The translations under genes and the position numbers were made by a program. Shown piece by piece: positions 26,390 through 64,000 of a stretch of 64,000 nt of DNA. The DNA is taken from positions 310,001 through 374,000 of the forward strand of contig JAYKAV010002662.1 of assembly GCA_035582835.1 (NCBI GenBank), in the 5' to 3' direction. The notes beneath the pieces are model-generated. The model searched no databases. It was not told the origin of the DNA and saw only the letters and a program-made list of their open reading frames with translations. Position 1 is the stretch's first letter, and every line of letters begins with the position of its first letter. The stretch comes from Phoebastria nigripes. Taxonomy: Eukaryota > Chordata > Aves > Procellariiformes > Diomedeidae.

Positions 26390-26455
26390 ATGGCGGGGCG
26401 GGCGCCGCAGCGCAGCCTCCCGGCGGCGGCGGCCGCCGCGCTCCTGCTCTTGCCC
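26390..26455 (+). CDS. Exon 1 of unrecognised secreted or membrane glycoprotein (signal peptide start)
   Basis: Sixty-six bases encode 22 codons beginning MAGRAPQRSLP and continuing with six alanines, four leucines and a proline: a positively charged n-region and the first part of a hydrophobic signal core. The ATG has G at +4 but C at -3, so the Kozak context is moderate. The exon ends in phase 0 at CCC|GTAAGT, a perfect intron-side donor. It lies inside a CpG island, as first exons usually do. Reading through the donor gives a GC-rich frame to 26602 that I regard as intron. The hydrophobic core is completed by IVLHC at the start of exon 2, 13.8 kb away. The protein family is not recognised. 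The alternative is an unspliced or differently spliced transcript. Confidence 0.68.
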
Positions 26456-26558
26456 GTAAGTGCCGAGGCCGGGGAAGGGGTGGCGCGGGGGCAGGGAGGG
26501 AGGGCGGGGGGCGCCCCACGACCGCGGGGAACCCACTCGGTCTGTGAGGGAGCGGGGG

Positions 26559-26851
26559 CTCTGCCCCGTCTCTCACAGGTCCCGCCCGCCTCCGGGTGCT
26601 GAGGGATCCGTCCCGGTGACCGTTACCCGCTCCCTCACAGATCCCGCCCGTTCCCGGGCTCTGAGAGACCCCGTCCGGGAACCGTTACCTGCTCCCTCAC
26701 AGATGCTGTCCGTCACCGGGCACTGAGAGACCCCGTCCGGGGACCATTACCTGCTCCCTCACAGGTCCCACCCGCCCCCGGGGGCTGAGGGGTCCGTCCC
26801 GGTGGCTGTTAGCCGCTCCCTCACAGGTCCTGCCCGTCTCCAGGCGCTGAA
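26559..26851 (+). repeat. 62-bp minisatellite, about 4.5 copies
   Basis: The pentamer CACAG, within CTCCCTCACAG, occurs at 26574, 26636, 26698, 26760 and 26822, exactly 62 bases apart each time. Between them lie variants of TCCCGCCCG, then CTGAGAGACCCCGTCCGG and ACCGTTACC. Copies differ by point changes but not by length. The array starts about 100 bases after the exon 1 donor. Every unit ends in a pyrimidine stretch plus CAG, resembling a 3' splice acceptor. Confidence 0.9.
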
Positions 26852-27612
26852 ACTTGCCATGGCCACTCACCTCTAGGTTCCCTCAGAGCCCCTGGGCTGA
26901 ACCATGGCCCTTGGTCTCCCCTTCTCTGTGAAGCAGCTGCCTCCCTGTCCCCTTTCCTTGCCAGAAAAGGTCCGACACAGGGACCCCACTGGGGTCACAG
27001 CTCCCTGCCCCAGAGGAAGGGGGTTTTCCTGCCACTGCCCAGTTCAGCGGGGCAGTGGGTGGCCATGTCTGGTGCCTGTTGTCCCCAGCCTCTTGCCCTG
27101 GTCCCCCTCCTCGCAGCATGTGCTCAGCATCCGTCGCTCTTTCACCGCAGGGATCAGCAAACAGCGGTGGTGAAGGACAGGGATCAGCCTGCGCATCCAC
27201 CCAAGTGTTTGCTCCGAGTTTCTCTTGAGCGAAATGTAAGAGAGGCTTTTCCTCATGGTCCTTCTTCATCACAAGCTTCCCCCTGGGTGATGCTGGGATG
27301 AGGTGGAGATAAGATTGGCCTGTGTCAGACTGGACTTAAAACAGCTTTCTCAGCCCACACTCCTAAGTCAGACTGACTTCTTTGGTGGCTTGTTTGTTTT
27401 AAGTGATAGTTTTAAGTGTGGTAAGTGATACTTGCAAAGCAAATGTGAGAGATTAAGCAGGAGGTGCATTGATCTTGCACAAAATTTCTAAAGGCTGTTC
27501 CCACAGCATTAAAAAAGTGTCACTGATCCTTCTGGACTGTAGTGTAATTGGCCCATCTTTAACATTTCCTTAGATAAAGAAAGAAAATCTGTTCTATTTC
27601 CTTATGTTCTGT

Positions 27613-27644
27613 CTTTTTTTTTCTTTTTTTTTTTTTTTTTTTTT
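27613..27644 (+). repeat. Poly-T tract
   Basis: Two long T-runs split by one C, about 32 bases. It could be the A-tail of a minus-strand retroelement, but no body is recognisable beside it. Confidence 0.75.
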
Positions 27645-28159
27645 CCCCTCTATCTAATTTACAAAGAAAGAGGGAAGCCGGGTCAGGAAAAGCAACAGGC
27701 TCCAAAGGCAAGCAACAATTTTAATCTTAAAACCTTTGCGGTAGCTTTTTTAGAAGACAGAGAATATTTTCTCAGCTCCGCCAATGTCTTTTTTCCCCAG
27801 TCAGAGATCAGTGCACATGGGATCAGAGTGGCATGGGTCTACACACTTGCTGTTTTCAATCCCAGACCAGTACTTCCTAATCTTTGTTTCTTAGTCCTTC
27901 TTCTCTTCCAGGCTGTGTTTTCCCTTATTGATTTCTTTTGGTCCATAAAATTATTTCAGTTTATGTTTAGAGAGGGGTACTTCTTGCCAGTGAGGTTATC
28001 AAAAGTACCCAGGTACCAGGAGCTGCCAGACTAATTCTTTTTCAATGAATCAAAAAATGTCATGTGCTTCCCCTGTAGATGTAATCTATGGACAGTTTTC
28101 CAGTTCCCTTGTAAATTTTGGTAGTTGGGTTGCTGCTTTAAAAACAAAAGAGCTTCCTT

Positions 28160-28179
28160 GAAAGAAAGAAAGAAAAAAA
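28160..28179 (+). repeat. (GAAA)n microsatellite
   Basis: Three to four GAAA units followed by an A-run. Simple repeat. Confidence 0.7.
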
Positions 28180-30586
28180 GTAGCACAGATTAAAAATCAA
28201 AATGTCAAGTTTCCATAAAATGCATTTAGTCTGAGAGAAATGTGTACTTGGAGTGTATTCCGAGTGTGCTTATATGGAGGAGCTTGTTTGGATGTAGCAT
28301 ACTTGTGTCTGGTACAGACTCATGTGTACGCCTGTGCGGTATGTGGAAATAATGTGTTGGAAGACGATCTTCAGCCTTATGTATAGAACAGCTCTTGTTG
28401 CTCCAGTTGTAGCAAAAGCAGAGCTTTTACTGTTCTTTTGGGGTGTGTTTTCATCTGCAAATGTTGTTGGTAAATCTGTATCTCTGCTTTACAGCTAGAT
28501 GAAACTTTGCACCAAGAAGCTTAAGAGAAATGTTTTAAACTTTGGCTCAAATCCAAAGCTCTTAAGTGTCTGTTTAACTTGAAAACACTTGAAAGTTGAC
28601 TCGAAGTCAATGGCTCTATTCACATTTGTGGATTTGAGAAAAGACATAGCTGCTTGTGAGAGCTGCTTGTGCTTACGCGATTAAGGAAGCTTAAGTTTTC
28701 ACAGCAGCTGAGCAATTGTGTTTTATGGGAGCTGCAGGTTTGCAACACTTATGAAATGAGGCAGCTTTCTAGTACAGAATTAGACCCGCCACATGAAAAT
28801 GCTGGTGCAAATGACCTGTCAGATTTCACAGGGCTGGTCAACAAAAGGGTGAAGACTTGCACAGCAGGCTCTGAGATTTATGTGCTCTTAAAGGGTTTCT
28901 GTACATATGATACACTGGAAAATGTATTTACTTGAAGTGAAAAACAAACAAACAAATCATAAAACAAAGGCAAATGAATCTTTTGACATTTTGATATAGA
29001 GTCCTTGCTGAGTTCACGTAATTTGGAGGAGGGGGGATTATTCATCAAAAACAAAAGCAAAGCTTGCTATAATTCATATGCTCTCCTGAAGCTGTTAAAA
29101 CAGCCAGAGCAGTTTGAGTATATGAGCCAGTGGTGACAAGTTAAATAATATTCCTGGTCTGAGACTGCCAAAATTCAGTCCTACTGTGAATTAATGCAGT
29201 ATAAACATCTCATCATGAGAAGCCTTTCCTGGTGTAGTATTTTGGCAGGGTTTAAATCTGTAGCCATCTTGTCGTTATTACTGGATGTTTGAAGGAGGTA
29301 GTTGTATGCAAGGAAGAACGGCTGATGTCGGCTGACTGGTAGTTTTGCCATGAAACATTTCAGTGATATTCATAGCTGCCCTTAGCTAGAAAGAAAGCAG
29401 CCTTTAGCTTTTGTTCATATAAGGCATCTGCTCACATATTATTATTCTGTCAAGAGCGGATGAGAAATAATGATTAAGTCCTCTAAACTCTGTGGCCTTC
29501 ACATGGCAAACCAGAGTGCAGTTGTGCCTGCCCTGCTTCTCGCATGCCTCTGCTGAAGCTGGTGGAGGAAGACAGTGCAGGGTCTCATTGCAGAGTGTGC
29601 TCTATCAGGTGCATACTTGTTTAGGTTCAGTCTCATAGGTTATATCTCTACTAGTACATTAAGATTGCCAGGACAGCTCTTCAGCCTTCAGGCCAAATGC
29701 CAGAGAGTGGCTTGTGCCCATGCTATTAAGCTTCTTCAGCTTCTAAAATGGGGAGACTGTGTGCAAACTGCCCATTGAGAATGGTCCATGGTGCAGCCTA
29801 ACTCCCAGGTCATTCCTGGGAACTGTTTGAGATACCGCTAGATTGCTTGGGGCAAAAATGTGACCAGGAACCATTCTAAAAATTTAACAGTATAAATGAT
29901 TAAGTACTTAAAACAGACCTTTGCACTGTTTGATTTATTAGCTTAGATGGAGTATGCTGTACTCCCATTGCTCAGGGCTCTCAATGAGTGCCTGAGGGAG
30001 GCATTTTCCTCTAAGGCAAACTCTTCATTGCTATGAATTCAGCGATAAGCTTTCTTTGTATTTGAGATTACTGTGGGATCCTGCTGGTGGTGTGATGATC
30101 TGAGAGATTCACAATGAGAAAAACAGGGTAGTGGATAGTATCAACTTTTTAAGGAAGTATGTTTCTGTTTTCTTTTTATTTTAATTTTGCCCTATATATT
30201 AGTAAACCAAATATTTAAAAAATATTATATTAGAACAAACATTTGCACATTTCTAGATTTTTAAATAGTTCTGCAGATTTTATTTTTTGGGGACGGGAGA
30301 AGGTGAGGAAATGCGGGTGGTAAAAACAGGCTACACACACTGCTGAATTTGATCCTTTTTAGTTTATGTCACTTTCAGGTTTGCAGCACTACAAACCCAA
30401 GAAGGAGGCTTTGGGGAAAAGATGGTTTACTTTAGATTAAAATTTTATCCAGTAAGTGACATTTCTGCAGGAATTTACTTTTCCACTCTGTGTCTATAAA
30501 TTGAAGCAGATAGATCAAATCTTGAATCATGTACACATCCTTCTTTCTTTTAACCTACACCAGTTTTAATCCCAAATGTCGTCTGT

Positions 30587-30641
30587 TCTCCCTCAAAGTC
30601 CTTTCCAACCTAAATGATTCTACGATTCTATGATGCTATGA
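30587..30641 (+). mobile_element. CR1 LINE 3' terminus, plus strand
   Basis: CCTTTCCAACCTAAATGATT followed by CTACGATTCTATGATGCTATG is the end of an avian CR1 in sense orientation, including the degenerate ATTCTATG octamer repeats. The body upstream is too diverged to trace, so only about 55 bases can be assigned with assurance. Confidence 0.75.
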
Positions 30642-32953
30642 AAGTGCAAATATTAATTCTTGGATGTAAAGCTGGAGCTGTCCAGTGAGCCACATGGCAC
30701 CTCCTTGCCTCCTGTAGATATGCAATGATAGGTATCAAAGCATTGCATAAACATTGTCTTTGCCTCCTTATCTTCCTATTCATAACAACCAGCCTCGACA
30801 ACTAAACACTTCCTGCTGGTTTGCTTTATCAAACTATTTCTTTATACAGAATTACTTTCTTTTACTGCTAATCCTTTTTTTGTCTTAATAGCTGTGAAGA
30901 TAACTAATTTTGATTTGAGCTGGCGAGTGTTGGGTAAAGAGCTTTATGTGTTTTATTTTTTTTCTCTGAAGAGTTGGATAAATTTTGCTATGGCCCTTAT
31001 TACAAGAGAAGACAAATAGAAACTAGTCATTTACCATTGCGATCAGTCAGCTAACAAGTACTGTCCTTCAGATGAGCAACTCCTTGAATTTCATCAGCCA
31101 TGTCCAAACATATGAAAATTTCATTTCCAGTTTCTGGTGCCAGTGTGGGGATAATTGTTAGATGCTTCCTACAATGCTCTTTGGCATATACCGTGTCATG
31201 CTTTCTAAGTACTGATCAGTTCTCTGGGTCTGGGATCATTTGGATTGGCTCTCACAAGCAGAAGTTCTGCCGGCTCTACATGATCTTGACAAAGGCTGTG
31301 CCATTTGGGAAGTGCTGTGGCAAGGACAGTGGCGTTCTGAGAAAGCCAGTTCACAGAGGTGGGTTTTGACATCCTGTCCTGACCTCTGGCTCATGAGTAC
31401 CTCATTGCTGTGCAAGTGAGCCCACGTTGAGAGTCAGGTGCTGGGAGGGTGCTGCTCCTGCCCGTGCACATCTTGTTCCCCAGACTGACAGCTCTATTGT
31501 GGAGCTACATGGGTGGAGAACTTGGAAGCTGTCCTTCTCTGGGAATGATCAATGAAACGGCATGTGTTTGTACAGAAACGCGGCTTGTTTTCACTAAATA
31601 AGAAAGAAAATCCATTTGGTATTTCAAGAGCTGAAAAGTACTTCTTCAACAGAGCTGTAAGAAAATTAAACTAATTAAAGCTCTATAAACTTTTGCGTAA
31701 TCCTGGCTGAATAACTATCCACTCTGGGTTGTGTATGCCGGGAAAGTAAATAGTGAGCAATGCAGATGGAGATTAAAATACATTAGCTGTCCTCACTGCA
31801 ATGCTAAACCCTTGCCCTGGTAATAGCAGCTGAAGTGCCAGAGAACTGGAAGGGAGCCACCTGCCTCTGGGGGCTATGGGATAATCTCTCTTGCTGTTAC
31901 CCAGGTTCCTGGGATGTGGGAGGCTTTCTGAGTGCCGTTATCTCTGCGCTGCCTTAGTTTTGGGATTGCTGTCCTCTAGCAGGGGTGGCTTTTCCAGTGG
32001 AAAGGAATTTCTGGGAGGAAGGAGGAAAGAAGGTGAAAGCGAGTAAAAGGAAGTGTGCTGATGAGGCCGAACAGGTTGCCTGCAGGGCTGCCAGCCAGGC
32101 TCTGCTAGCAGGCGTCTCAGTGCACGGACTAAAGTATCGATTCCCTTTGAGTGGCAGTAGCAGACTCCCACAGCCCAGACATAGCTTGGGTTTCAGGAAG
32201 CTCATGCCAGCAGAAGCAGAGAGGTGGCCCGGGAGCCAGCACCAGTGGCTGTACTTTGTAGTGTGGCCATCACAGGCGTAACCTTTCTGCTTTCTCAGTT
32301 CCAGTTCCCAGGGCTACTCAGAGGAGCGCTGTGCTCCTGCTGTTTCCTTGTTTTGGGGGCGAGGACATCCAGGGACCAGTCTGCTCCTTCTGTTGTCGAT
32401 TGACTCTTTCAAAGCAGAGAGGAAGGCCAGAGTTATCCCTCTGGCTGACAAGAATGATGTCTCAGAGCACATGACAGGATTTTGACTAGGCAAGCTCCGA
32501 ATCAGATGGAGTGAGGATCTTTCCTCATCCTGCCTCATGTCCTAACTGCTGGGAGATCAGCTATTTAGTCCATCTTGAACTTGAGAGACCTTCCCAGGTG
32601 TAACAAACCCCTACTTTCTCAAAACAAGTGTCTTTTCATGAATATTTTCAAGTCTTGTCAGACTTTCAGTATTTCTTTCTTTTGGACAGAAAAAAAAGTT
32701 TAAAAGAAAATTCTATTTTTAAATATTAAAATAATTTAAAAATATCTTTTCATAGTATTTGGCATAATGTTTTAATTATGATTATGTGAACATAGTCCAA
32801 AATATTAGAAACATGAGTGAAAAAAACCTCAAAGCCTCTAGATTGCTGGTTATTCAAGATACAGTCTGTAAACTGTTAATTACAGCATTGCCAATAGAAA
32901 GGGCTTGGGCGTAACTGTTATCTATTATTCTTTTTACCATAGGGTCTATGTGT

Positions 32954-33253
32954 CCTAGAATCAAGGAATGAAAAAAATGCTGGAAGGGACTGCTAGAGGT
33001 CTCTTGTCCAGCCTCCTTGTCAAAGAAGGGCTAATTCCAAAACCAGAACATGTTGCTCAGGGCCTCATCCAGTTTGGTTGTGAAAATCTGCAAAGATGGA
33101 GATTTCACAACATCTCTTTTCACAACATCTCTGAACCTCTTTTCCAATGCTCAGCCGTTGTTATGGTGCATAATTTTTTCCTCATGTCCTGTGAGATTTT
33201 CCCTTGCTGCAACTTGTGAATGATGCCTGCCTCTTGTCCTTCTGCTGTCAACT
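32954..33253 (-). mobile_element. CR1 LINE 3' fragment, about 300 bp
   Basis: From left to right: AGAATCAAGGAATG (decayed octamer tail), TGGAAGGGACTGCTAGAGGT, TCCAGCCTCCTTGTC, TTGCTCAGGGCCTCATCCAG, GATGGAGATTTCACAAC, CTGAACCTCTTTTCCAATG and TTTTTCCTCATGTCC. This order is the complement of an old avian CR1 3' region, so the copy is on the minus strand and 5'-truncated. A local 15-base duplication of TTCACAACATCTCT lies at about 33103-33132. Confidence 0.8.
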
Positions 33254-36200
33254 TGTTAGACCTTCTCTTGTTCCAGTCCTGGAGTTAAATTTCACTGTGA
33301 TATGTGCTTTTCAAATACTAAAGGTGGGTTCCAGCCCAAGAGTTAGCAGTTTAAGGAAGAAGTGATGGATGGAGAGAGAGAGAATTACGAATGAGCCAGT
33401 GAGGTGACACGGGTCATCAGCAGTGAACTATCATGGAGTCTTGGGTCAAAGGAACATTTTATGGGGAATACAGAGGTACCATTCTTGACATTCCGTGGAC
33501 AGTGAGAGCAGATATCACTAGCTGATTAAAGTCTTGATCCAGAATGGGAGATGGGTTTTTACCTTTTTTAGGTGGGAGCATGCTGGCAGAGACCTGAAAA
33601 ACAAAGATGAGGAGTTCACATTTGATGAGCTAGAATTGGGGGAGCCTGGGAAGGGAGGCCTTGAACTGTAGTGGCAGTGTGGTAACAACGGATGGGTGAA
33701 TGATCTTTGCGGAGACTGTTAAGGTAGGTAAGAATTTGCCTGGGGGAGGTAGCTGAGATACTGGCATTAATTTGGGTAAATGTGACTTTTAAACTTGAGC
33801 TACTCTGGATTCCTTGTGTGTTTTGTCTCCAATACATAAGTCATCTCATCCTAAAGTACATATTTAAAGCAGAAGTGAGGGATTGTTCCTTGATAGCGCT
33901 TCCGTCTTCCACTGAGTGTTAGGGAGCCTAAGCAATGCCTTCGGAAGTAGGTAAGTGAGGTGAATCACATTTGAGCTGCTGAGGGAATTCATAGTAATGT
34001 GAATTCGGTGGAAAGAGTGGGGAAGAATTAGTCATGGGTTTGGTGTGAAGACCTAGGAAAAGGGCAGACAGGAAGGCAGGAGTGCTGTGAAGGTCTTGCT
34101 CCCCTTCCAGATTCTGAATATGATACGGGGATATCCCACAGATATAGGGAATGAAGAACAAAACTCTTCAAGGATGTGAAATTGAAAAGTCTTTCCATTA
34201 AACAATTTTATTTGAAGACAGCTGTAGCTTGTGATTCAAATGCTATTTTGCTCCTTTTTAATATCTCATGTTGCTTTGGGAGGGCATGGAGACTTGGTTG
34301 GACAAGTCCAGCTCATGGGTGGCCTTAAACAGTTTTGCTTTGTATGCTGTGACTCAGAAAACCACTTAGCACATGCATGGTTTTCAGCGGATGAAGAACC
34401 TCCCCTCTACACCCTTATTCAGGAGAGCACGTAGGCAGATGCTTAATGAAGGCAGATCTCCAAGTTTCAAAGACAACAGTGAAGTTCAGTGGTGGGCTCA
34501 GTGTAGCAGATGCTTGAGTTTTTTAAATTTATTTCTGAATAAAGATGAATTTAATTTCATGCTTAGAACTGAGCATGTGTTTAGTTGCTTTATTGAACTG
34601 AGGTCCTGCTTCCCATTCCATGCAGACTTATATTCTCTTTCTTCAGACTTCCTGGAAGAGCTGCAGAATACATGCTGGCCTCTAAAATCATAGAGCAATG
34701 TCTCCTGGATCATTTGGGGTTCACTAGCTAGTAGGACTATTTTATATAGCCGCTTGGATTAACTTAGAGACAAGTAACGACAGGGAGTTGAAAGGGCTGA
34801 AGGATGACTGGAAAAGACGACTGTTTTTCTTGAACTGCGCTAGCAGTCTTCCTTTTACTGTAACCTTAGCTGGCTCAGATTTCAGGTTGCAGGTTCCTGT
34901 GAAAACTTGTATTTAGACCTTCTGTCACAAATGGAAATTATTTTTCTGGTGAAGCAGAGCCAAACGATTGTATACTGCCAAATGCCGCTGCACTAGCAAA
35001 GTTAAGTTACTGAGTTGAGAAAGGCCAAAGATATCTTGAAGCAGACGACTGACCTTTTTTGGTTCTTCAACAAGCAAAGTATTTCCACCATGCTGGCTCT
35101 CTTAGCACTGTCCTTTAATAAGCATCTCTTTTGCATACATCTTGTGTACGAAGTAACCACATGACAGTGAATATAAATCCATCCTCGCAACAGAAAAGAC
35201 TGCCTTCCCCTCCTCTCCTAGGCTGTTCTCTGTTTTCCTCTCTAAGTAGCATTCTTCACTCTCCTGGTTGTGCATATTCCTTCAGGTGATTAGTAGTTAG
35301 CAAATACTCTGGCTCTCCTCACTCTCTCCCATGTATTGCTATCTCTTGTTAGAGAGAAAGAGCTTCTCAGATGAATGTTGGCATTTGTTATAAGTGCATT
35401 CTGCTGAATACCTGGTGTTTTTCCCAAAGCATCTGTTTTCACACACAAGTACTGGTGATGGCAGGAACCCCCGCAAAACTTGCCAGATGCCCACCTGAAC
35501 TGGAAACTCCCTAGCTGTATTCAAACAGAGTATGGGTTTTGTCAAGGAAGTGTGGGATTTGCTTTGGTTTTGCTGCATCAAGCTCTTTCACTAATTATAT
35601 TTTCATGGTGAAGTTAGATGCATGTGTTTCCCTAAACTGAGCTTCTGTGGACACAAACTGACAGTTTTTGCATTTAATTGGACCGCTGCTCTGAGACAGT
35701 CCTTCCCAAACATTCAGGTGAACACTCGATCTCATTGTAGAAATGGTGCATTTGGAGAGCTTAACTTAATAAGGTTACCTTTGAACGAGGAGTATTTCTC
35801 AAATTAATTTATTTGAATTGTCTAATTGAAGAACTAATTGCCCCCCCCCCCTTTGTTCTGGGGCAAAACTACAAAGTAGCAGCTTTCTGTGTGCTGAAGG
35901 CAATTTCACTGCACTGTTGATACTGAAATGAGGTAGAATTTGAGGCCGCAGCACTCCCAGGTGTTTTACAGAAACCCCTGGGAGGAGGTGCAGCAGGACT
36001 CTTAACAGCAGTGCTGCTTCACAGAAATGAAGGGTGGGAGTAAGCATCCTCCTAACATGATCCATGCCGTTACCACAGATGTCTACTCAGGAGGAAAAAG
36101 TGCTTTGACTTTATAAGGAGCACAGATGCCTGGTTTAGACTGAGACTTCATTTTTATGTGGCAATGGAGACATGAGATGGATCCTTCTCTTGTCAACTGT

Positions 36201-37264
36201 GGACTGAGCACATCTTTTGTGATTGATAACTACAAAATTGTTTGGTGTTGGAAGGTCACTTCATCTTGCTCAGTAAAAGAAAGAAAACAGTAGTACTCCA
36301 GATAATTTTATAAGATGGTGATGTGTTCCTGTCTTCTGTAGCCATCACCTCTAAGAATGTTTTTACCTCTCCTTTTGTATATAGTGTCTAAAGAAAATTT
36401 AGGAAGGATTCATCTAAGTTACTCTGTCCTTATAGTGGGTGAGACCCAGCTAATGCAGTCAGTGGAGGTCAGGGACTGATTCATTTCAACTTAAAGATTT
36501 AAAATATGGCAGATGAACTGCACCTGAAAAATTCCTACTTCCCTTCCTGAATTGCAAAGGAATCCCCAAGTGATCAGCTCAGCTGTTGCTGTCTTTATTT
36601 TGAAGTCTGAGCTATTTGAGATAAATCCCATTGCTTTTCTGCAAGTGGCTTTCTGATGAGATGCTGTTATAGTTCCACGGGATGGATTTCTCTAGGACCT
36701 TGTAAGCACTAGATACTGCATGTTTTTGAAAGGGAGAATTTTTGCTCTGTTACTTTGAGACTATGTCTCAGATGTCAGCACCTCTGCTTTTGTTCAGCAT
36801 GCCACCAGCAGATGTTTTACAGGGAGGCGTAACAGCTTTTTCTAAAAAGCTGGCTTTTATTAGACAATTAGTATATGGTATCTGGGAATTCTTATGTGAG
36901 AATGGGACAGCGGAGCATATGCATCTGTCCATGTTTGGCAGCATTTGCTGCCTCCGAGCTTACGTCCCCCATCTTGGCAACAACTGTTGCACTGTCATGT
37001 GTCATCCTTTTCCACTTCAACTTTTTCCTTCAGTTTTCAGTCATGCTGACTTCATCTGCTCTGCTGCTTCTTATTGCTAGATATTTAAACTTACAAGATG
37101 CTGTCCATTGTATCTCGGTGGTAGCCCCATGCCTATATTGACAGTTTTGGATCCTATTCATAGCTTTGGGGGCTTGTTTATATTACTGTAGCCATTTCTT
37201 ACATGTTTGAGAGAAGAAAGCAACCTCTCCAATGCAGGTGAATTACAGTAACAGTGTTCATTTG

Positions 37265-37283
37265 TTCTCTCTCTCTCTCTCTC
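37265..37283 (+). repeat. (CT)n microsatellite
   Basis: Nine CT dinucleotides. Simple repeat. Confidence 0.8.
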
Positions 37284-37300
37284 ACTACTTAGTGAGATAT

Positions 37301-37332
37301 ACTACTCAGTATATANACTACTGAGTATATAT
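37301..37332 (+). repeat. 16-bp tandem duplication
   Basis: ACTACTCAGTATATAN (37301-37316) is followed at once by ACTACTGAGTATATAT (37317-37332). The core TACTCAGTA is near-palindromic, so the unit also pairs with itself. Confidence 0.75.
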
Positions 37333-40304
37333 ACTACTTGAACACAATAATCTTTCAAACCAGGACTCTATGTTAATTGATTTTAAAATTAAGTTACAAG
37401 TCCTCTTTAATCTGCATGAAATAACCACAAATTCTGGTAGGAACTGAGAGGAGGCAACACTATGATGGGTCAGATATTTGTCTATGCCCAGAGCTCTCCA
37501 TATGGATCTATTGAGGCATGTTACATATATCATATAATGTTGCATATGTGTTTTTATGACTTCATGTTATTGCTTTATGAGAGTACTTGTGTGACAAAGA
37601 ACAAATTCTATATAAATAAATGTTTGCAAGATTGGAACCCTTCCATTTGCAGAGGAGCACACACTACTCTTGCAACTTCTAACAACGTAACATAGCAATA
37701 TGTTACTCTCTCTTAGGTTGTTGCCCTTTTCATCTGCCCTTCCCATATCTAGAGGTGATCTTATGGTGAGTTCCTCTGATTGTGTCTTGCAGTTGCATGC
37801 CCTCTGACAGAGATTAAGACCTTTCATGGATTAATGAAGAGCAGTGACCATGGCCAAGGGGAAAGGTCTAATGAAATGACCATGAGAGACGCAGACAGTG
37901 ACACACTAGAACAATTCATCCACTCCTTTTCTGAAAGCCCTCTCAGATGTGTACAGGAAGTTGACCAAAGGCTCCATCTATTGTTCTGAAGAGTCAGAAC
38001 TGGCCTGCAGACTATTAGTTGGTGCCCCTGCTTTAGAAAGTAAAGGACTCCTTTTCACCTTAATCTGTGGCTCGGTACATTATTTTTATTTGTTCATAAA
38101 TGTCCACAGTGGCTCAGAGAAATTAAGATAGACATTTCTGTGCATGTTTCAGGTAAATGTGCAAGACAACATAGAACTGATTTGGTGGGAAGAGGTCATG
38201 GAATAGTAGCTGTCTTAAGAGAAATGCAGTTTGAGTAAAGAAGTGCATTAGTTACTCAAAGCAACTAATATTTCAAAATATATACACAGTCACAGGCCCA
38301 ATTATTTATCTTTAAAATTGTACATTACTTAAATGTTTCTTTTTTTGTTGTTCTTTTTATTATTTTTAAGAGGGTTTTTTAGGTTTTTTGGGTTTGTCTG
38401 CTTTAAATACAATTTTTAAAAAGTATCACACACAAGAAACTTGTTCACTGTGGTTAGTGGAGAGAAAATGAAAGCAAAAGTAACATACTATCTGGAATGC
38501 ACTTTTCCCTCTAGCCAAATGAACCTAAGTTGACCCTAAAGCAAATGTGACATTTAACCTTTCTTGTTCCTACACATGCTGTGCTAAGCTTGACCTCTGT
38601 CTGTTCTTTCCCATCATCTTACGAAGCGGACAGCTGAACATGCAGTGTATTTACAGTACATGGAGATGTCTCAAGTTTCTTCTTTGAAGTGAGACAGTGC
38701 TTTGGTCTGTGAGGTAGCAGAGGGGCAGAGGGATAGAAGGGAAGAAATGCCTCTGCTATGTCAACTCATGTGACTGGGTCTGACATGAGACATGACCACT
38801 ACAGAGTCTGCTTTCTGGCAGGCTTGGCTGGAGTTCTGTGCCTTGTTAGATGGCATCTGCCCTGGCTGCAGAATAGAGCCATTGCCTTTCTCTATCTCCT
38901 TGACCTGACCATGCATAGTCAGTACCCTGGGAGGCAGGAGTTTGAGTCTCCCTGGAGGAGAAACAGCAGCTTCATGGTGTTTATTTGAAAAGAATGAAGT
39001 CTGAGAAAGGCTTTTTGTTTGTATTTCAAGACTTCCTATTTTGTAAANTAACAGCAAGTGAGAAATAGATAGAAATGGTGTTGTACAAAGAACAGTTGTT
39101 CTTTAGAGACCAACATTGCTGATGAATTCTATTGTCATGATCATTTACTCCANTTCTTATTAAGTGACAAGGAATTCAGTGACATAAAAAGGGTTCTGCA
39201 ATCACTTAACGCATCTTAAAGCACTGAAATGTAACGTCAACATTCAAGGAGTATGGTCGTTTCCCTGAGTAAAAGCTGTCTGTATTATGTTAGAGTCATT
39301 CTGCNTAAATAGAAAAGCAAAGGCATTTTGTGTGTTACCACAGCTTTATATCCCCTCAGAAATAGTCAGGAAGATTTTGTTTCATAGTTTGAAAATGGAA
39401 GTTTCTGTCATTGATGTGTCACTCCTGAATTTTCTCACCATGTTTAGTTCTGCCTTTCTTAAAGGGCTTTTCAAGAGCTTCTCTTGCTCCAAGCAGCATC
39501 CCAACTCAGAGATGTACAGTTCTCTGTCTGCAGTGGTCAATTTAGTAATTTCATTTCTGAGTGTGAAAATGACAATGTATTCCTTGGATTCAACTCTAAA
39601 TACACATTTCCTAAAATTGACTTGGGTATGTACTATTATCCTGTACTGAACCTGCAGCTTTCTTGAAGTGCCCGTGTTGATACTACTGATCTCTTTCTCG
39701 CTAGCGTTTGCCCTCAGTGGAGGGCTCAGCACTNTGAATTCTGAGGGTCAGAAAATCATGTCTTTTTTACTGGCTAAAAAGAGCCAAGGATCACCTTAGA
39801 AGGGATGCCTACTTTTCCTATACAGTCAATGGAAGCACTTTTCTCAAGCCTTCTGAATTGCCCTTTGCCAATTGCTGTCTCTCTTGAATGTGTAAGGATC
39901 TTTAGCACCCATGTAGCCATTAAAAGTCAGTTGAAAAAATTCCACANGTGATCTTTAATGAGATATCATTCATCTTCTCTGTTTTAGGCATCTACTTTTA
40001 GGTGAGATAAATTGTGTCCTGAGCTTTGTTAATGCTATTGACTAGCTCCCACAAGAAGAGGTCCAGGATAGGTGGTTCATCTGTAGATGCCTACATTTAG
40101 TCAGATGAATGCCACCTGATGTCATGGAGCTAAGCAAGTATAACCGTAAATCTTCTCTGTCGTGAGGGGATATCTGTACCTGAACCAACTATGAGTGGGA
40201 ACTGCTATGAAAGTGTTGGGGGTTGTTGTACTCATGAATGAGAAAATCCATCCTGTGCTGCTGCTTTACTGTTTGTTTTGTTTTGTTTCTGTCTGTTCAT
40301 CCAG

Positions 40305-40398
40305 ATAGTTCTTCACTGTGAATCTTCTGTAAATCTGCCCTTGTCTGTTCTGCTGGAAAAGTACTGTGAAGCTTTGTCAGCCCGCACCAATGTCACAG
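40305..40398 (+). CDS. Exon 2 of unrecognised secreted or membrane glycoprotein
   Basis: Ninety-four bases between a strong polypyrimidine acceptor (TTTGTTTCTGTCTGTTCATCCAG, ending at 40304) and the donor CACAG|GTATTT. In the frame dictated by exon 1 (phase 0) it encodes IVLHCESSVNLPLSVLLEKY followed by CEALSARTNVT, and ends in phase 1. The first residues extend the hydrophobic core begun in exon 1, giving one plausible signal peptide with cleavage near HC|ES. NVT is an N-glycosylation sequon. The fit of phase and of signal-peptide logic across a 13.8-kb intron is the main evidence that this is a true exon. The donor is only moderate at +4 and +5. The family is not recognised. Confidence 0.63.
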
Positions 40399-49062: not shown

Positions 49063-49096
49063 TTTGTACGTTTGCTGTACAAAGAAAATATTTATG

Positions 49097-52579: not shown

Positions 52580-52634
52580 AATATGCATATATATATAAAA
52601 TTATATACATATATATGTATAAATATATATAAAC
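52580..52634 (+). repeat. (TA)n-rich simple repeat
   Basis: ATATGCATATATATATAAAA, then further ATATAC and ATATATGT units. Low complexity. Confidence 0.85.
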
Positions 52635-54282: not shown

Positions 54283-54376
54283 AAGGAAGATAACTTGCCT
54301 AAGATCACAGGGTTAGCTAGAAGTGGATTTGAAATTCCTCTCTCTGCCTCATGCTCTAATAACTACTCTCTTCCCT
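54283..54376 (-). mobile_element. MIR-like SINE relic
   Basis: AAGATAACTTGCCTAAGATC, ACAGGGTTAGCTAGAAGTGG, ATTTGAAATTCC and CATGCTCTAATAACTAC align well with an antisense MIR: the TAACTTGCCCAAGGTCACA block, the CAGCTAGTAAGTGG block, the GATTCGAACCC box and the GCTCTTAACCACTA end. Better preserved than the copy 400 bases upstream. Confidence 0.6.
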
Positions 54377-55181: not shown

Positions 55182-55196
55182 TTTTTTTTTTTTTTA
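55182..55196 (+). repeat. Poly-T tract
   Basis: About 15 T in a row. Simple repeat. Confidence 0.8.
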
Positions 55197-57193
55197 TTTC
55201 TCTTCATGTCAATGCAGTCTGAATCAGTGGTTGCCTTCACCTTCTACACTCTGTTCTTGGTAGCTCATTTGTTGTTGGGCCAAATGTGCTGTGCAAACAT
55301 AGGGGCTCAATTCTGCTCCCTCATAAGCAACATTGTGGGCCAAACGCTTTCTTCTCATTAGTGCTTTTGTGGCTGCCAGCAGACTCCATCTTGGAGTGCC
55401 ACCACCTCTGGCTTCAGGTAGTGGAATACCTCTCCACATGCTTTTTTTCTCCTATGCTTTCTTTATTATTTTCAAGGCCAAACTTAAAACATTTCTTGTT
55501 TTCAATTGTTATTTTTTTATTTAGCCTTTGGCCCATGATTGCATTACANCTTGCAAGTAACAGTTCTGCTTTGTAATTACTACACTTTGCCCTCTCCAGC
55601 TGAGTTACCAGGGGGTGGAGGAGACATGGCCCCATCAGCTAAGTGCTACCAAAGACTTAGTGTGGAGATGCAATGTTTTTCTTTCCCAGGCTGTATTATC
55701 ATGGGTAATTTCAAGTAAGTGTTGTTTCGATTCCTTCTTCCCAGTGCTTTCCTCCTTACTTATTTTTTGAAATCAGGAGTAGTTGTGAGACAGTATCTGC
55801 TTGCAGATGGGCGTCCTTGTCCCTTACAACTCTGCAGCTGCTGCATGTGTTGCATAGCTGTACTTCATTACTCTAGATTGTGTGATTGTGATTGCCTGTG
55901 GTGAAATAAACTTGCTGCTCCTTGCAAATGAAGATATTTGGCTGAGCTGATTCCTGATAGAGAGCAGAGANGGTAAAGAGTCAGTGCTAATTTGGAAATT
56001 TCACTGCGTAGGAAGGGGCTGAGAAACTGGGAGACGGATGGACTGTGTGTCTTTCCCCTCTTCTCCAGGCTCTTCCTCTACTCTCTCTCCTCTTTCTTCC
56101 TGCTCCTTCACAGACTCCTGAGATATAGGACATCCNATCTCTCACTCCATCCTCCTCTTTGGACCCACAGATCCTCCTCTACATCTTCTTTGTTGCAGGT
56201 GTCTAGAAGTCCCCACCAGTCCTTATTCATCTTACTGAGCCTGCTGCGCTGNTAGAAAGATGGGGGCGATGGAGATGAGATAGAGCAGAATCTAGANCTG
56301 GTCTTTGCTCTTAAGATCAGGGCTGGGATGGATATCTGGGAGATGTTAAGGTTTTCCTCTCCTGCTGCCATTTCTGCACAAGCTCATTGGTTTAAGACTT
56401 AATGGAGAAGCAATGGTCATGGGATATTTCAACCAAGATTTAAAAAAAACCCTTATATTTGTGTTTATTGGATGCTGCGTCAAGGTCACAGTGTAAATCT
56501 GAAATCTTTTGGTACCTCTAGAAAAACAGTATTTTCAGTAATTGTTAGCANGGCAGAGTATTTAACAACAGACACTCTTTAAAAGTGTCAAGAAGCACTT
56601 AAACATGATCTTGTTAGTAAATTAATTTCTAAACATGACCTAGATTAAAAATAACAACACATAGTAGCAGAGAAGCAATGTAAAGCTAGTATAGTGAGTA
56701 TGCACCTAGATTCAGTGCCTTTTCTTTCAGTTCCCCTAATGTACTGAGGGGTTCCCAAACGCTAAATATAATTACAGTCAGAGTGTTTGCTATTCCTGTC
56801 TGTTTAGGAATTTCCAACACAAATTCTTAAGGCAATGATAGTGTAAAATTTCCCATAGGCAAAAGCAAACTTAAAAAAAAAAATCCACTTAAAAACTTAA
56901 TACTTCTGATTGCTAGTAGATGTCTAAGTAAGAATAAAACAAATTTTACCTTTAGGAAGATTTTTACTTTATAAGATTTTGAAAATATTTTGGAAACTAC
57001 TTTCAAGTGTATTAAAACCTTCAGAAAAAATAAAACAGACCTCACTTAACTGGCTNTTTTTTTTATTAAAAAAAAAAGAACATTAGCCTGGAAGAAAAGT
57101 AGCAGGATGTTTCACTTAAGGTACAGTCAGATAAGTACTTGTTATCACAGCCCATTTTTAAGAAGGCATTTCTTCCCTCTCCTCCTTTCTTAN

Positions 57194-57358
57194 ATGCTGA
57201 AACTGATTTAGGCAAAGACAGTTTGCTTTTCATTCTAGCTGATGGTCCTTTGTTAGGTATCAGAAGAGATGGAAACTTTTCAGTCTGTGCTAATCTTACC
57301 ATGATTGACCACATATATTTTTCAGTAGTTGACTCATCNGTTGACAGCCGAGTCCAGT
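57194..57358 (+). CDS. Exon 3 of unrecognised secreted or membrane glycoprotein
   Basis: One hundred and sixty-five bases, phase 1 at both ends. The acceptor is a strong pyrimidine tract ending TTCTTAN, where the N at 57193 must be G. The donor is CAGT|GTGAGT. The first two bases AT complete the G left by exon 2 to give Asp. The exon then reads AETDLGKDSLLFILADGPLL, continues GIRRDGNFSVCANLTMIDHI and ends YFSVVDS-x-VDSRVQ (x is Ser whatever the N at 57339 is). Two sequons, NFS and NLT, and a cysteine fit an extracellular domain. The alternating hydrophobic pattern suggests beta strands. Reading past the donor meets a stop at 57391. The family is not recognised. The exon would fail if 57193 is not G, since no other acceptor nearby has the right phase. 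Confidence 0.63.
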
Positions 57359-57438
57359 GTGAGTATAAAATATATGGAGTGAAGACCAAATAACCCTCGG
57401 GGGGGTCAATAATAATCTGATAGGCTCTTCATTTCCAG
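57359..57438 (+). other. Intron 3, only 80 nt
   Basis: GTGAGT donor, a C/G-rich middle with a G7 run at about 57400, a branch-point-like CTGAT near 57417, and the acceptor GGCTCTTCATTTCCAG. It contains an in-frame stop, so it must be removed to join exons 3 and 4. Introns of about 80 nt are common in birds. Confidence 0.5.
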
Positions 57439-57694
57439 GCATCCATCGGGCATTGGTGGGTGGTGGAACTCCCTCTGGAACTCACCAGTTCTGTTCTAGN
57501 CACATCCCAGAGGAGAAGTCTGCTGACTCCCGATACCATTTAGAACAGGGTGAATGTTTTCCTTCAATATTCCTTTTAACTCCAAAACATACAGATTTTG
57601 ACTTTAGGAATGTGTTTAATTTTCAACAATTACTGCCAGAGGAAAAAAAAAAAAATCTGGATTTACATAAATGTATATGTTTTCTTTTGACAAG
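57439..57694 (+). CDS. Exon 4 of unrecognised secreted or membrane glycoprotein
   Basis: Two hundred and fifty-six bases in phase 1 to phase 2. GC completes the T from exon 3 to give Cys. It reads IHRALVGGGTPSGTHQFCS, then HIPEEKSADSRYHLEQGECF, PSIFLLTPKHTDFDFRNVFN and FQQLLPEE, three lysines from an A13 run (57643-57655), NLDLHKCICFLLT, and ends at ACAAG|GTAAAA. Several cysteines agree with an extracellular fold. The N at 57500 gives Ser or Arg. An earlier, weaker donor inside the exon (ACAGG|GTGAAT at about 57553) would shorten it and leave it in phase 1, but then exon 5 would not join in frame. The A13 run is unusual for coding sequence and is the main reason for caution. Confidence 0.5.
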
Positions 57695-58137
57695 GTAAAA
57701 AAAAATCCCACTTTGACATGTTTGGAAAAATCTATGTATTAGAAAAATCACGTTAAATCCATAAATGAAACAAACCTCCTTCAAATCAATTTCTTTAAGT
57801 TATGCCTAATCAGAAAAGGAAGGGAGAGGCTTGTCTGAGTAAATTCAGACATTTCCACACTTTAAAATAAGTAGGATAAAACTCAGCTGCCACTGTCGAT
57901 GCCTGAAATTNGGTGAGATTAATTCTACCCCACTTGTTTGTACAATCAGACCTTTTCTCTGCTTACATTGATCTCAGTGCTGTTAAGGTATCATAAACAT
58001 TTTCTTTTTGTAGCCTTTGGCCTGCATTTTTTTGTGTTTCTCTCATAAGCTGAATAGTAATTATCCAAGCAAAATGCTGTTCTGAAGAACTACGGGGTTT
58101 CTTTCCCTAAGAAAGCGGCAAATGCATTCCTAAGAAT

Positions 58138-58432
58138 GATCATAGAGTCATAGAATCATAGAATCATTTGGGTTGGGAAAGACCTTTAAGATCATCGAGT
58201 CCAACCATAAACGTAGCACTGCCAAGTCCACCACTAAACCATGTCCCTAAGCACCTCATCTACACGTCTTTTAAATACCTCCAGGGATGGTGACTCAACC
58301 ACTTCCCTGGGCAGCCTGTTCCAATGCTTGACAACCCTGTCGGGGAAGAAATTTTTCCTAATATCCAATCTAAACCTCCCCTGGCACAACTTGAGGCCAT
58401 TTCCTCTTGTCCTATCACTTGCTGCTTGGTNG
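58138..58432 (-). mobile_element. CR1 LINE 3' fragment, younger subfamily, 295 bp
   Basis: Left end CATAGAGTCATAGAATCATA and GAATCATTTGGGTTGGGAAA, followed by GATCATCGAGTCCAACCATA, CACTAAACCATGTCCCTAAG, CTTTTAAATACCTCCAGGGA, CCTGGGCAGCCTGTTCCAAT, AAATTTTTCCTAATATCCAA and CTTGAGGCCATTTCCTCTTG. This is a well-preserved avian CR1 3' end on the minus strand, 5'-truncated at about 58432. The open frame 58241-58510 is its by-product. It is antisense to the gene, as expected for tolerated intronic copies. Confidence 0.92.
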
Positions 58433-61400
58433 GTAATGTTTCTTTTCCATTGCTATGGGCTTCTGTCCTGCTTCCACAATTTGTGTACCACTGAAGATCA
58501 TTTTCAATGATTCATAATGAAGGAATCTACTTTAATGCTGAAAAGGTACCATTTTTTTATCATCAGCACACTGTAGTGTAGATTATGTAGTTCAGAAACA
58601 TTTACTTCCTCTTGGGGTCGCAAAGGTAGGGGCTATTCATACTTTTGGCTTCTGAGAATTGAAATGGTTGTTATAATGCAGATAGGCTTCTTTGAAAACA
58701 TTACAAAATCCCTCTTTTATCAGTAGAGAAGAGGACAATTTGAGTCACATTATAAACACAAGGAGGGCCGGTTATGTTGCTGCAGCTGGGACAGGAGGAC
58801 ATGTGATATCTGAAGGCAAGAGCATGGCCTGTAGGTAATTGAACAAGGACAGGAAAGATGCAGGGTATGTTTCTGGTCTGTTGGGCCTTGTTCAAAACAC
58901 TTTGCCTTCCTGGAGAGGTACAGTTCACCCAAGTGTCTGTCTACATTTGAACTAGTCACTAATCTTTACAGACCAGTGGTACAGTCAGTNTACAGAAACA
59001 GGCACCTCAAGAGGGATAGTTGCCTGTAGGAGCAAATCACAGGATAAAATGANTTGACCTGTGGAGGCATTTGTATTCCTCTGCAGAACATAAATGGAAG
59101 GTTACCAGCTCTGTCTTGGAAACCTTAATTTTCTATACCTNGCTCTCTGCAAATCCATGTGCACNCTGTATGTAGATTCCCAGCTGCTTTCTAGAATAAT
59201 AGTTTTTCCTTTATTTTTGCTGTTTCAGCCTATTAATAAAAGCTTTTAGGAGACCAATGAGTTCTCATTTTCTGGGGCACTTCTAATCTCAGAAATGAAA
59301 ACTCAGTCTGTCTTGTGGTTATAAATCATATTGTTATTGTTATTATTCATTTTCTTATTATGATAGTATCTAGAAGCTAAATCGGATCAGCATGTCTCTT
59401 GGGATAAACACTGTGCAGATCTCAACATGCTCAGAAAGGAAGAGGTTTTTACCTTTAAACAGTAAGAGTTTATAGCTGCTTGTTTGCCTCCTTCCTTCCC
59501 TTTTTATTTATTCTGGAAAGCATGGGCTTCAATGAGATTTTCGACTCTTAGCTAATGCTCTTAAAATTACATCAGTCCCGAACTGATGGGCTGTATTAAC
59601 AGTGGAAGTGTAAACTCTGAGAAATCAAAATCTATTTTCTATGCCAATGGAATCTATTCAGCACAAAACCCCCAAACTCAGCACTTTGCAGTAGTTCGAT
59701 ATTTTCTGAGTGCTTTGTAGGAATCTCAGAATTTTCTCCAGTGATGTCGAGTTCTTAATCCTGAGCAGTTTGACTCCTACTTGGTCCAGAAAATGGGGCA
59801 AAATGGGTTGTTTTGGTGCTGTTGTTTAACTGGTTAGTTTGTTACAGCCTCCCGCATGCTCAATCACAGACCATGAATTTGTGAAGTCAGCAAATGCACT
59901 TATGGCCATTTAGCTCACAGCATGAAAACATACTGTATAGGTCCAGCTGCCTCAGGTTTAGCCCTGTGTATTAAGATGACTGTTGCTTCAGCTTTTCCAC
60001 AGTGTGTTTTACTGGGCTGGGTTGTAGCATGAGACAGCTTTGTTTCCAAATTCAATTAATCTTAGGCTTAAAGCTAATCACAGAAGGGTCAGTCTCACAC
60101 GAAAGGTGTACAGCCTGCTCTAACTCAGTGCAACAGGTACTGAACACATTAAAGGTGCATTCAAGACAGCTTTTCAGTCTGCCTGTGCCCAGAGTTGGGT
60201 GTAAACAGATGTCAGCTGGGTTAAATCATTTTAGTTTGGTCTCTGCAAATTCCTATGAAGAACACTAATTCTTCTGCAATATAGATAATTATCTGCAAGA
60301 GTACTTCCTACTTCAAAGACCCTGGTAGTTATTTTGGGGAGCAGGACAGAGCTCAATGAAATGAAAAACTGCACTTGATCTCTTGCAGCAATGCTGGTTC
60401 TGTTGTCTGGTTTGTGAAGGCCTATCCATCAGGAGGCCTCAAATTTAATGATGGCTAGTGTTAGAGATTAAAAAGCCAAAGACATGCTGTTTGAATTATG
60501 TGTAAGTAAAACTGCGGAAGTTATTTCTAATTCATTGTTCACTTTTCTCTTATTTGGTGCTATTGGTTGGTGAAAANCAATCATTCATTAAAGAAAGAAT
60601 GTGATTAGGAACAGGATTCCTATGTAGCCATAATAAACATCATAATGGAAAATTTTACAAAAGTGAAACCAAAAGCAAAGACCNAGTAGAAGTGTTCAGC
60701 TCTCCACAAATTGAGGCTATTTTTACAGGAAAGATTTTCTAGGCCTGATTTTTCTTCTGTTTTCCCTACAGATGGGATTCCTGTCCCTAAGTTTAGACAT
60801 TTATAGTACAGACATGTCCCAGTGAACAGGTCAGCCCAGGTTGCCTTTATAGTTAATGGTAAGAAAGAGAGACTTTTAGAAGACGATTTATCTGACCCAA
60901 TTTAAGTATCTTCTTTATAGTGACAGAAATAATCCTGTAGAGTCCACTGACTGCACTGACTAGATCCCTCTTGACTTTTAAGGGAGCCTAGAGATTTCTC
61001 TGCCACTGACAGTTACTCTATAGACTATTAAACTGAGACAAACAATCCCATTCACATCATCTGCAACTCAGAGGAGAACTGGCCTGAGCAATGCCCATCT
61101 ATCAATTCTTTTATGGACTACTTGGTTTATATTTTCTACAGATTTTGCCTCCAGCAGAGACTTTTANGGAACAGAATCCATAAAAACTAGTAAAATTCTT
61201 CTGAAAAGGAGTGGTGTTTTCTTCTAAAAAATAAAAATTTCTTTTTATTCTCAGAAGTTTCTTATAAGGCGGTTATTAGGTTTTATCTGAAGAGGGTAAA
61301 ATGGGCTGTTCTTTCATATCCATAAAATAATCAGTTATTTCAAATAAAACCATGGCTTTCTTGGTGTGGAGGAACGCTCAGCTATTGATTTCAGTGGAGA

Positions 61401-62937
61401 CTGGAATTTTAACGTTAAAGTCACAGGACTGTATTGGAGGAATAACCTTTGCCCAGAGGTAGAAAAAGAATTCAGCTCACCTAACNTTAGATATGCGTAA
61501 TGTAGACAACTGCAATTAAGTCAGACACCTCAGGCTCCTCTTATAAGCAATTGCTAGTGCAAGTGCATTTATACATTCACCTGATTTAAATGTACACTTT
61601 ATAATGAGATGTGCCTGGTTCTTCCATTGGCTGTTAAGGGAGTCCAGGTGGTTAGCTCACAGGCAGAGACTACTGCACACCCACATGGTCAGCGTGTTCT
61701 TACCCAGAGCTTCCCGTTGGTGTTTGCGGATGACCTACTGCAGGTCCGAGCACAGAAATATTATTATTAACTGTAATACACCAATGATATCATAAAGGCC
61801 TTTAGGATAAGCNAATCAACATCTAAAATTTAAGGATCCCAACCTTTTATTTCATTCAGGAAACTGCAGATATCAAAAAAGTCTAGGAAACTGATGTAAA
61901 CCCCTGCTCCAGATTTTACACCTTTGTTCTTCTCCTGTCTACATTTTCTGTCACCTGGCAAACTAAAAATCCCATGCAATTCAGACTAAATAATTAAAAG
62001 GTAATTTAAATGACCCCTAGGATGTTCCAGCCCAACTCTAGCTAATCTTGTATTCAAAGACAGAAGCAGAGTGACAGAGGCCAAGAACATCCATTTGTCC
62101 ATTATCATAGGTAGTTTTTCTGTCTGTGTTAGAGTATCTCAAAGGATCTGGGATAAAATGGTCACATCAGGACTGTTTATTCAAAGCTACTTCTAAGTCG
62201 AGGAAAAGAAAATATTTTCTGCCATGTGTGTTAGGCTGGCTGNCTTATATCTCACTTACAGTTAAATACATTCAAAGTAACTCAGAGAAGCAATACCAGG
62301 ATAATGGCAAAATCCACATCCTTCCCCAGCTGGTAGTGACAAAATTATAGGAGGTGGCTGAAGGGTGTTTGATCCTTTTTTGAACTCTTGGGGCCTGCAG
62401 CAGACTCCACTCTTTCTGATTTTGGTCTTTTTTTACTCAAGCCACATACGGTGTATTTGGGTGAATAGTGGGTAGTCCTGTAGCTATGAAACTCAACTGA
62501 GAGGTTATATTTTGTCATCTGTCTCATTTAAGCAGATTCATCTCCCACTCCTCAGAGAGGTGAGGAATCACCAAGCTGGTGTCCTTCTGGAGGTGGACAT
62601 CTTCCCGTGAGGCCTGTGAAAGCTGCTGTGCTCTCTGCACATANATAAAGTTCACTTTAGCAGGGGTCAGGGAAAAGAGAAACGAGATTTTGATTCAGGA
62701 TATACCTAAGAGTTTGGCTGAGCTGTGAGTGACAAAGGTATGGGGCAAAACTGAGTGAAACAGGGCTCTACAGCTGGTTTTCCCTCATCACAAGGGAAAG
62801 TTCATCCCAAATGACTATTCTGGGATGATCAAAGCTACTTGTCTCTTATTTTGGGACTGGAAATACTGTCCTAAGAAAAGATACAACAAACTGTTCTGTT
62901 TTCACAAGACAATTTAGATTTAACTAACTCAGTCCTT

Positions 62938-62984
62938 TTGATCAAAAAACAAAAACAAAAACAAAAAAACAGGAAAAAAAGAAA
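62938..62984 (+). repeat. A-rich (CAAAA)n simple repeat
   Basis: AAAAAACAAAAACAAAAAC-like units with A-runs, about 47 bases. No adjacent retroelement body was seen. Confidence 0.8.
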
Positions 62985-63595
62985 CACTTTGTCAGAAATT
63001 CTCAATTGGCAGCAGTCTGCAAGTACTCTCAGCAGTGTGGACATAGCGTGCCTCTTCNCACAGGGGAATGGAAAACCTTACATGATCTCCTCTTTCCGCA
63101 GGACCAGCATTAATGTGAAAAGGATAAGATGATTGATCCATCAGTGTTTCCATCAAGAGCANATTGAACCAGCCAGGGAGATTGGTCTCGAGGTGGGGAA
63201 ATAAGTTGGAAATCATATGACAGAGGTCTGAAAGCACACTTACTTGAAAAATGAATTGAGTTGTGCAGTGATTTCAGAGTGAAACGATGTGGTATGGGGA
63301 GGAATGGGTGATGAGGACAGACTTTGCTGTCCATCTCAAACCCATAATCTCTTGTGCAGTTGATAATCTTGTGTGTAAAAGGAAATTTTCTGTTCAGTGA
63401 AATTCATCTCTTACTGTAGTGACATTTTTGCTGTTAAAGAAGAAGGGGCCGTAAAATGCACTTCGTCCACATGCAGATCTTTGTATGAACTAGTGAACTC
63501 TCCTGTTTTGGTTGTTGTTGGTTTTGTATTCAGGTAACTATAAACAGGTTTTCGTTTGTAATGTTTTTAAAAGCAATCAAATGTTTCTTTTGCAG

Positions 63596-63654
63596 TAATG
63601 GAGAATTAGGAGAGCCCTCCAGTGGCCAAGCAAAAGAAATACATTGCTATGGCA
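63596..63654 (+). CDS. Exon 5 of unrecognised secreted or membrane glycoprotein
   Basis: Fifty-nine bases with a strong acceptor (TGTTTCTTTTGCAG) and a good donor (GGCA|GTAAGC). The first T completes AG from exon 4 to give Ser. It then reads NGELGEPSSGQAKEIHCYG and ends in phase 1 with A. The other two frames hit stops within a few codons (TAA at once, TAG by the fifth codon), so the phase demanded by exon 4 is the only open one. This agreement supports both exons. The peptide is short and hydrophilic, with one cysteine. No family recognised. Confidence 0.48.
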
Positions 63655-63929
63655 GTAAGCCAAACAAGTCTAGAAACTAGGGGAAGAAATACNTGCTACG
63701 TATTTCAAAGGTAGTAACTTCCAATCCTGTTAGGAATTACTTATATCCTGCTTACGTTGGTCCTTCGATCCAGAAGAATTCCACAGCACTTGAAAAACTC
63801 TCTGTCTATCCCTGAATGAAATAGTATGTATTTATTCATTTGTCATTTCTGTCTAGGAAGGGCTATTTGCATGAAGGGGAAAATACTTTAGGGATAAACT
63901 AATAGGTTTTATATTTAATATCTTTACAG
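63655..63929 (+). other. Intron 5, 275 nt
   Basis: GTAAGC at 63655 to the acceptor TTTAATATCTTTACAG ending at 63929. Contains one N (63693) and no recognisable repeat. Confidence 0.45.
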
Positions 63930-64000
63930 GAAATGAAAATGAAGAGAACTTGGTCCTCACTGAAGTAATTCTTAGTATTCAGGTTGCAATAACTGCAGAA
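63930..64000 (+). CDS. Exon 6, partial, running off the window
   Basis: Follows the acceptor ATATCTTTACAG. GA completes the A of exon 5 to give Arg, then NENEENLVLTEVILSIQVAI and TAE up to the last base, open throughout. The exon may end inside the window at ATTCAG|GTTGCA (about 63982), but the frame also stays open beyond it. The alternating hydrophobic pattern after NENEE looks like a beta strand. With this exon the assembled frame is 711 nt, 237 codons, without a stop. The rest of the protein, including any membrane segment, would lie to the right of the window. Confidence 0.48.

What the first reader, a model, noticed from the sequence alone, without database searches (positions are those of the whole stretch)
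26390..64000. Six-exon 5' part of an unrecognised secretory glycoprotein gene, assembled by phase-compatible splicing
Seen: six stretches with GT/AG borders (26390-26455, 40305-40398, 57194-57358, 57439-57694, 63596-63654, 63930-64000+) whose phases (0, 1, 1, 2, 1) agree at all five joins and give 237 codons with no stop. The product has a signal peptide, three N-glycosylation sequons and several cysteines, and the first exon lies in a CpG island. Known: this is the normal layout of vertebrate secreted or receptor genes. Inferred: one gene, extending to the right. I do not recognise the sequence, so it could be poorly conserved, lineage-restricted, or a known gene I failed to place.
Basis: partly seen in the sequence, partly recalled or inferred. 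Interest (0 to 1): 0.85.

Follow-up and report, generated by a model that had tools for sequence, protein, structure and literature searches.

The report
First exons of bird CRHR2 receptor
The first two of the six proposed exons are the start of a well-known bird stress-hormone receptor gene (CRHR2), and the other four look like chance open stretches inside its second intron, so this is ordinary.

Summary
The window is C1219:310001-374000 of a 1.2-Gb, bird-like genome. Exons 1 and 2 (26390-26455, 40305-40398) are real: the first two coding exons of CRHR2 (corticotropin-releasing hormone receptor 2), beta-like form with a signal peptide. Residues 1-53 are identical to Rissa tridactyla CRHR2. 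The next CRHR2 exon lies outside the window at 75373-75492; a 13-exon coding sequence with GT/AG introns runs to 190252, and its 427-residue product is 99.5% identical to a Melanerpes CRHR2. Proposed exons 3-6 lie in the 35-kb intron 2. Open chains as long arise by chance (16 of 30 shuffles, 19 of 22 control stretches). The acceptor of exon 3 contains an N; exon 6 meets a stop at 64034-64036. Relatives were found for exon 4 alone: one unspliced, one with the frame changed. A pigeon gene model joins exon 2 to the 57439 acceptor and stops early; a truncating exon there stays possible.

The parts
26390..26455 (+). CRHR2 coding exon 1 (start codon and signal peptide, MAGRAPQRSLPAAAAAALLLLP), in a CpG island
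   Evidence: Identical to residues 1-22 of Rissa tridactyla CRHR2 isoform X4 (P0001); part of the 13-exon CDS, 425 of 427 residues identical to P0010; donor GTAAGT
26456..40304 (+). CRHR2 intron 1 (phase 0)
   Evidence: The join 26455/40305 gives the start of P0001 exactly and of P0010 apart from two residues of exon 1
40305..40398 (+). CRHR2 coding exon 2 (IVLHCESSVNLPLSVLLEKYCEALSARTNVT + first base of a Gly codon), start of the extracellular domain
   Evidence: 31 of 31 residues identical in P0001 and in P0005; followed by GPYCNATTDQIG in P0001, P0010 and turtle P0011
40399..64000 (+). CRHR2 intron 2 (phase 1), continuing to 75372, outside the window
   Evidence: Next CRHR2 exon found at 75373-75492 in the same contig
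57194..57358 (+).
   Evidence: Acceptor reads TTAN; no hit aligns to it; among 129 protein sequences held it shares only the 5-mer PLLGI, which belongs to the CRHR family's own LPLLGITYML stretch
57439..57694 (+).
   Evidence: P0003 and P0129
63596..63654 (+).
   Evidence: Lowest of the five donor scores (3.8); no alignment, no shared 5-mer in 129 proteins
63930..64000 (+).
   Evidence: Stop at 64034-64036; no alignment, no shared 5-mer in 129 proteins

Best explanation
The finding is the 5' end of the bird CRHR2 gene (class B1 G-protein-coupled receptor for urocortins and CRH). A promoter in the CpG island at about 26.0-26.8 kb makes a beta-like transcript. Exon 1 encodes the signal peptide and exon 2 the start of the ligand-binding extracellular domain. 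Exon 2 is then spliced in phase 1 over a 35-kb intron to the common exon at 75373. A second, alpha-like first exon (ATG at 75114) lies just before that common exon. Shown by sequence: exons 1-2, the full 13-exon reading frame, the alpha-like exon. Inferred from known CRHR2 biology: promoter use, splicing in vivo, ligand binding and Gs/cAMP signalling. Proposed exons 3-6 are chance open stretches in intron 2.
For: Protein search of the joined product: best of 9 hits is CRHR2 isoform X4 of Rissa tridactyla, E 1.6e-21, residues 1-53 identical; 6 of the 9 (P0001-P0006) cover exon 2. tblastn of CRHR2 proteins on 324 kb of the contig places exons 2-13 in order on the + strand, and the alpha-like exon; exon 1 is placed by exact identity with P0001. 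With introns held to GT/AG by the script, a 13-exon CDS of 427 codons plus stop exists, 425 of 427 residues identical to P0010. BLAST identity: 99.5% to P0010 and 96% to turtle P0011 over 427 residues, 86% to primate P0022 (all CRHR2), against 74-80% over 389-397 residues to five records labelled CRHR1 or CRHR1-like (P0053, P0062, P0065, P0069, P0071) and 86% over 233 residues to bird CRHR1 P0047. Pfam finds HRM and 7tm_2 in P0010. The alpha-like first exon joined to the common exon gives 413 residues and one stop.
Against: No RNA data could be examined, so the junctions rest on protein records, many of them gene predictions. One pigeon gene model (P0003) joins exon 2 to the 57439 acceptor instead. 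The bird species was not determined, neighbouring genes were not identified, and a genome-wide copy count could not be made (genome search not answered).
Confidence: 0.98

Rival explanations
1. CRHR2 with an additional, rarely used exon in intron 2: exon 2 is spliced to the acceptor at 57438/57439 and the frame ends soon after, giving a short secreted N-terminal fragment or a transcript that is degraded.
For: The Columba guinea hypothetical protein P0003 joins exon 2 to this acceptor in the same phase (NVT-G-IHRAVVGGG). The acceptor is plausible (TTTCCAG; 2.7 on the simple score, the lowest of the four acceptors that could be scored). One of P0003's upstream pieces also has splice-like borders here (15746-15844), so the pigeon model may rest on real transcripts. 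Soluble CRHR2 alpha variants are reported in rodents, in rat by exclusion of exon 6 (passages of PMC6778379, and PMC10914602).
Against: P0003 has no Pfam or PDB match and its basis is unknown. The frame after the acceptor differs between pigeon and this bird after about 11 residues (comparison by eye). In P0129 the same stretch is read unspliced.
Confidence: 0.05
2. One reading: one novel six-exon secreted glycoprotein gene, at least as an alternative product of this locus.
For: Phases agree and the joined frame is open. In P0129, from an unnamed contig, about 67 codons of exon 4 are open in the same frame at 62-72% identity, depending on the alignment.
Against: Open chains this long are expected by chance. 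Exon 3 has no readable AG and no relative was found; none was found for exons 5 and 6 either; exon 4 leaves the frame at the poly-A run in P0129 and after about 11 residues in P0003. Identity in exon 4 is like that of the intron flanks of exon 2 in P0006 (67% and 80%), not like exon 2 itself (31 of 31 in P0005).
Confidence: 0.01

Closest known systems
CRHR2 (corticotropin-releasing hormone receptor 2), beta-like N-terminus, birds and turtles
   Same: Exons 1-2 and eleven further exons; 99.5% identical to P0010 (listed as Melanerpes formicivorus CRHR2 isoform X1), 96% to turtle P0011
CRHR1
   Same: Sister receptor; records labelled CRHR1 carry the same two Pfam domains
   Different: 74-80% identical over 389-397 residues to five records labelled CRHR1 or CRHR1-like (P0053, P0062, P0065, P0069, P0071) and 86% over 233 residues to P0047, against 96-99.5% over 427 residues to bird and turtle CRHR2

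Membership tests
CRHR2 | Closer to CRHR2 than to CRHR1 across the whole length | tested here: met
   99.5% to P0010 and 96% to P0011 (427 residues each) against 78% to bird CRHR1 P0062 (389 residues)
CRHR2 | Hormone receptor domain (HRM) followed by a secretin-family seven-transmembrane domain | tested here: met
   PF02793 6.3e-20 and PF00002 2.2e-71 in P0010, which is 425 of 427 identical to the assembled CDS; the assembled protein itself was not scanned
CRHR2 | Alternative first exons joined to one common set of exons | tested here: met
   Beta-like exons 1-2 at 26390 and 40305 and alpha-like first exon 75114-75231, both open when joined to 75373 onward, by sequence only; human isoforms by alternative first exons in a passage of PMC6778379
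CRHR2 | Binds urocortins and signals through Gs | not testable with these tools
   Inferred from orthology
   No relative found for exons 3, 5, 6; frame left in both relatives of exon 4, though about 67 codons of it are open in P0129. Orthologous bird DNA itself was not at hand
   16 of 30 shuffles and 19 of 22 control stretches reach 551 bases
   No RNA data available

The most novel reading that the evidence does not exclude
Bird CRHR2 may have an alternative exon starting at 57439 in intron 2, seen in a pigeon gene model, which ends the reading frame early and yields a secreted N-terminal stub or lowers receptor output: a route to a soluble or silenced receptor different from the rodent exclusion of exon 6.
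Probability: 0.05. Interest if true: 0.3.

Novelty: already known. Interest (0 to 1): 0.04.

Why it matters
It matters little: the gene is a well-known receptor. The useful lesson is that phase-compatible GT/AG chains of this length come free in long AT-rich introns, so two true exons can carry several false ones with them.

Tried and rejected
Pfam and PDB searches of the 237-residue joined product gave nothing useful: one DUF7199 match far under its cut-off, 0 PDB hits. A first family search of the genome with fn3 was a blind try and told only where the window lies. Rfam at gathering thresholds: 0 matches in the window. I considered a single novel gene and rejected it on the chance test and the lack of frame conservation. 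Paper searches: three (35 rows listed of 30, 86 and 8 papers found); no listed title was about bird CRHR2 first exons, and I saw passages of two papers only. A genome-wide copy count of CRHR2 was attempted and not answered. The 120 listed hits are the best of 545.

Full report
What was checked. One of the five acceptors is not readable: the base before 57194 is N. The sixth stretch runs into a stop at 64034-64036, just past the window. The window is contig C1219:310001-374000 of a 1.2-Gb genome.

What the first two exons are. A search of the joined product in 5.8 billion proteins gave 9 hits at E up to 10. The best is corticotropin-releasing factor receptor 2 isoform X4 of Rissa tridactyla (P0001, E 1.6e-21). 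P0002 (turtle), P0003 (pigeon) and P0004-P0006 (unnamed contigs) also cover exon 2. P0007-P0009 carry exon 1 read on into intron 1 (P0007's sequence; P0008 and P0009 seen only in the alignments). None of the nine aligns to exons 3, 5 or 6; P0003 matches a short part of exon 4.

Where the gene goes. I fetched 120 kb left and 140 kb right of the window and placed CRHR2 proteins on it. Exons 2-13 follow in order on the same strand; exon 1 is placed by exact identity. In window coordinates the coding sequence is 26390-26455, 40305-40398, 75373-75492, 118542-118627, 125014-125120, 140653-140770, 144995-145148, 148533-148593, 155621-155693, 170142-170227, 173984-174119, 175877-175918 and 190112-190252. 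The script admitted only GT/AG introns; with that limit the product has 427 residues, 425 identical to P0010. It is 99.5% identical to P0010, 96% to turtle CRHR2 (P0011) and 86% to primate CRHR2 (P0022), but 78% over 389 residues to a bird CRHR1 (P0062); over the 233 residues aligned, bird P0047, labelled CRHR1, is 86%. P0010 was listed with 101 member sequences. An alpha-like first exon (75114-75231) sits just before the common exon and joins it in frame. So beta-like and alpha-like starts are both present by sequence; human CRHR2 isoforms alpha, beta and gamma by alternative first exons are described in a passage of PMC6778379.

What exons 3-6 are. They lie in the 35-kb intron 2. In first-order Markov sequences the mean best chain is 561, and 16 of 30 reach 551; in control stretches from both strands of the surrounding contig, 19 of 22 do. 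A separate protein search with exons 3 and 4 had 7 candidates and gave 1 hit: P0129, an open frame from a 2-kb unnamed contig. It matches exon 4 only, reads through the supposed acceptor without splicing, lacks two codons, and leaves the frame at the poly-A run. The identity (62-72%, depending on the alignment) resembles that of the intron flanks of exon 2 in P0006 (67% and 80%), while exon 2 itself is 31 of 31 in P0005. The pigeon model P0003 uses the 57439 acceptor but is in another frame after about 11 residues relative to this bird (comparison by eye). Among the 129 protein sequences held, exons 5 and 6 share no 5-mer with any, exon 4 only with P0129, and exon 3 only PLLGI, which belongs to the receptors' own LPLLGITYML stretch. 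A coding exon 4 is unlikely; a rare truncating exon is left possible.

A point that speaks for some reality in the pigeon model. Of its three upstream pieces in this window, the one at 15753-15842 sits in a 99-base stretch (15746-15844) bounded by CCAG and GTAAGA, open in one frame from an ATG. The piece at 4116 has an ACAG a few bases upstream; the one at 22410 has no AG directly before it. These may be untranslated or long non-coding exons; P0003 has no Pfam or PDB match.

How it works. By orthology, the beta-like transcript starts in the CpG island (26000-26799), exon 1 supplies a signal peptide (mean Kyte-Doolittle 2.1 over residues 10-26), and the extracellular part binds peptide ligands; the assembled protein has five sequons. 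The HRM and 7tm_2 domains were found in P0010. Ligand binding and Gs signalling are inferred from CRHR2 elsewhere.

Verdict. Interest is low.

Noticed in passing
window 4116-4196, 15753-15842, 22410-22490: Three stretches 74-80% identical to the upstream part of the pigeon hypothetical protein P0003, colinear with CRHR2 exon 2. The middle one lies in a 99-base stretch 15746-15844 bounded by CCAG and GTAAGA and open from an ATG; it could be a transcribed exon. No Pfam or PDB match for P0003.
   Followed up: partly
window 26565-26850: A 62-base tandem repeat, 4.6 copies, just after exon 1, beginning in the CpG island of CRHR2.
   Followed up: no
   Followed up: no
window coordinate 75114-75231 (outside the window, contig 385114-385231): Alpha-like first coding exon of CRHR2 lies only 141 bases before the common exon.
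   Followed up: yes
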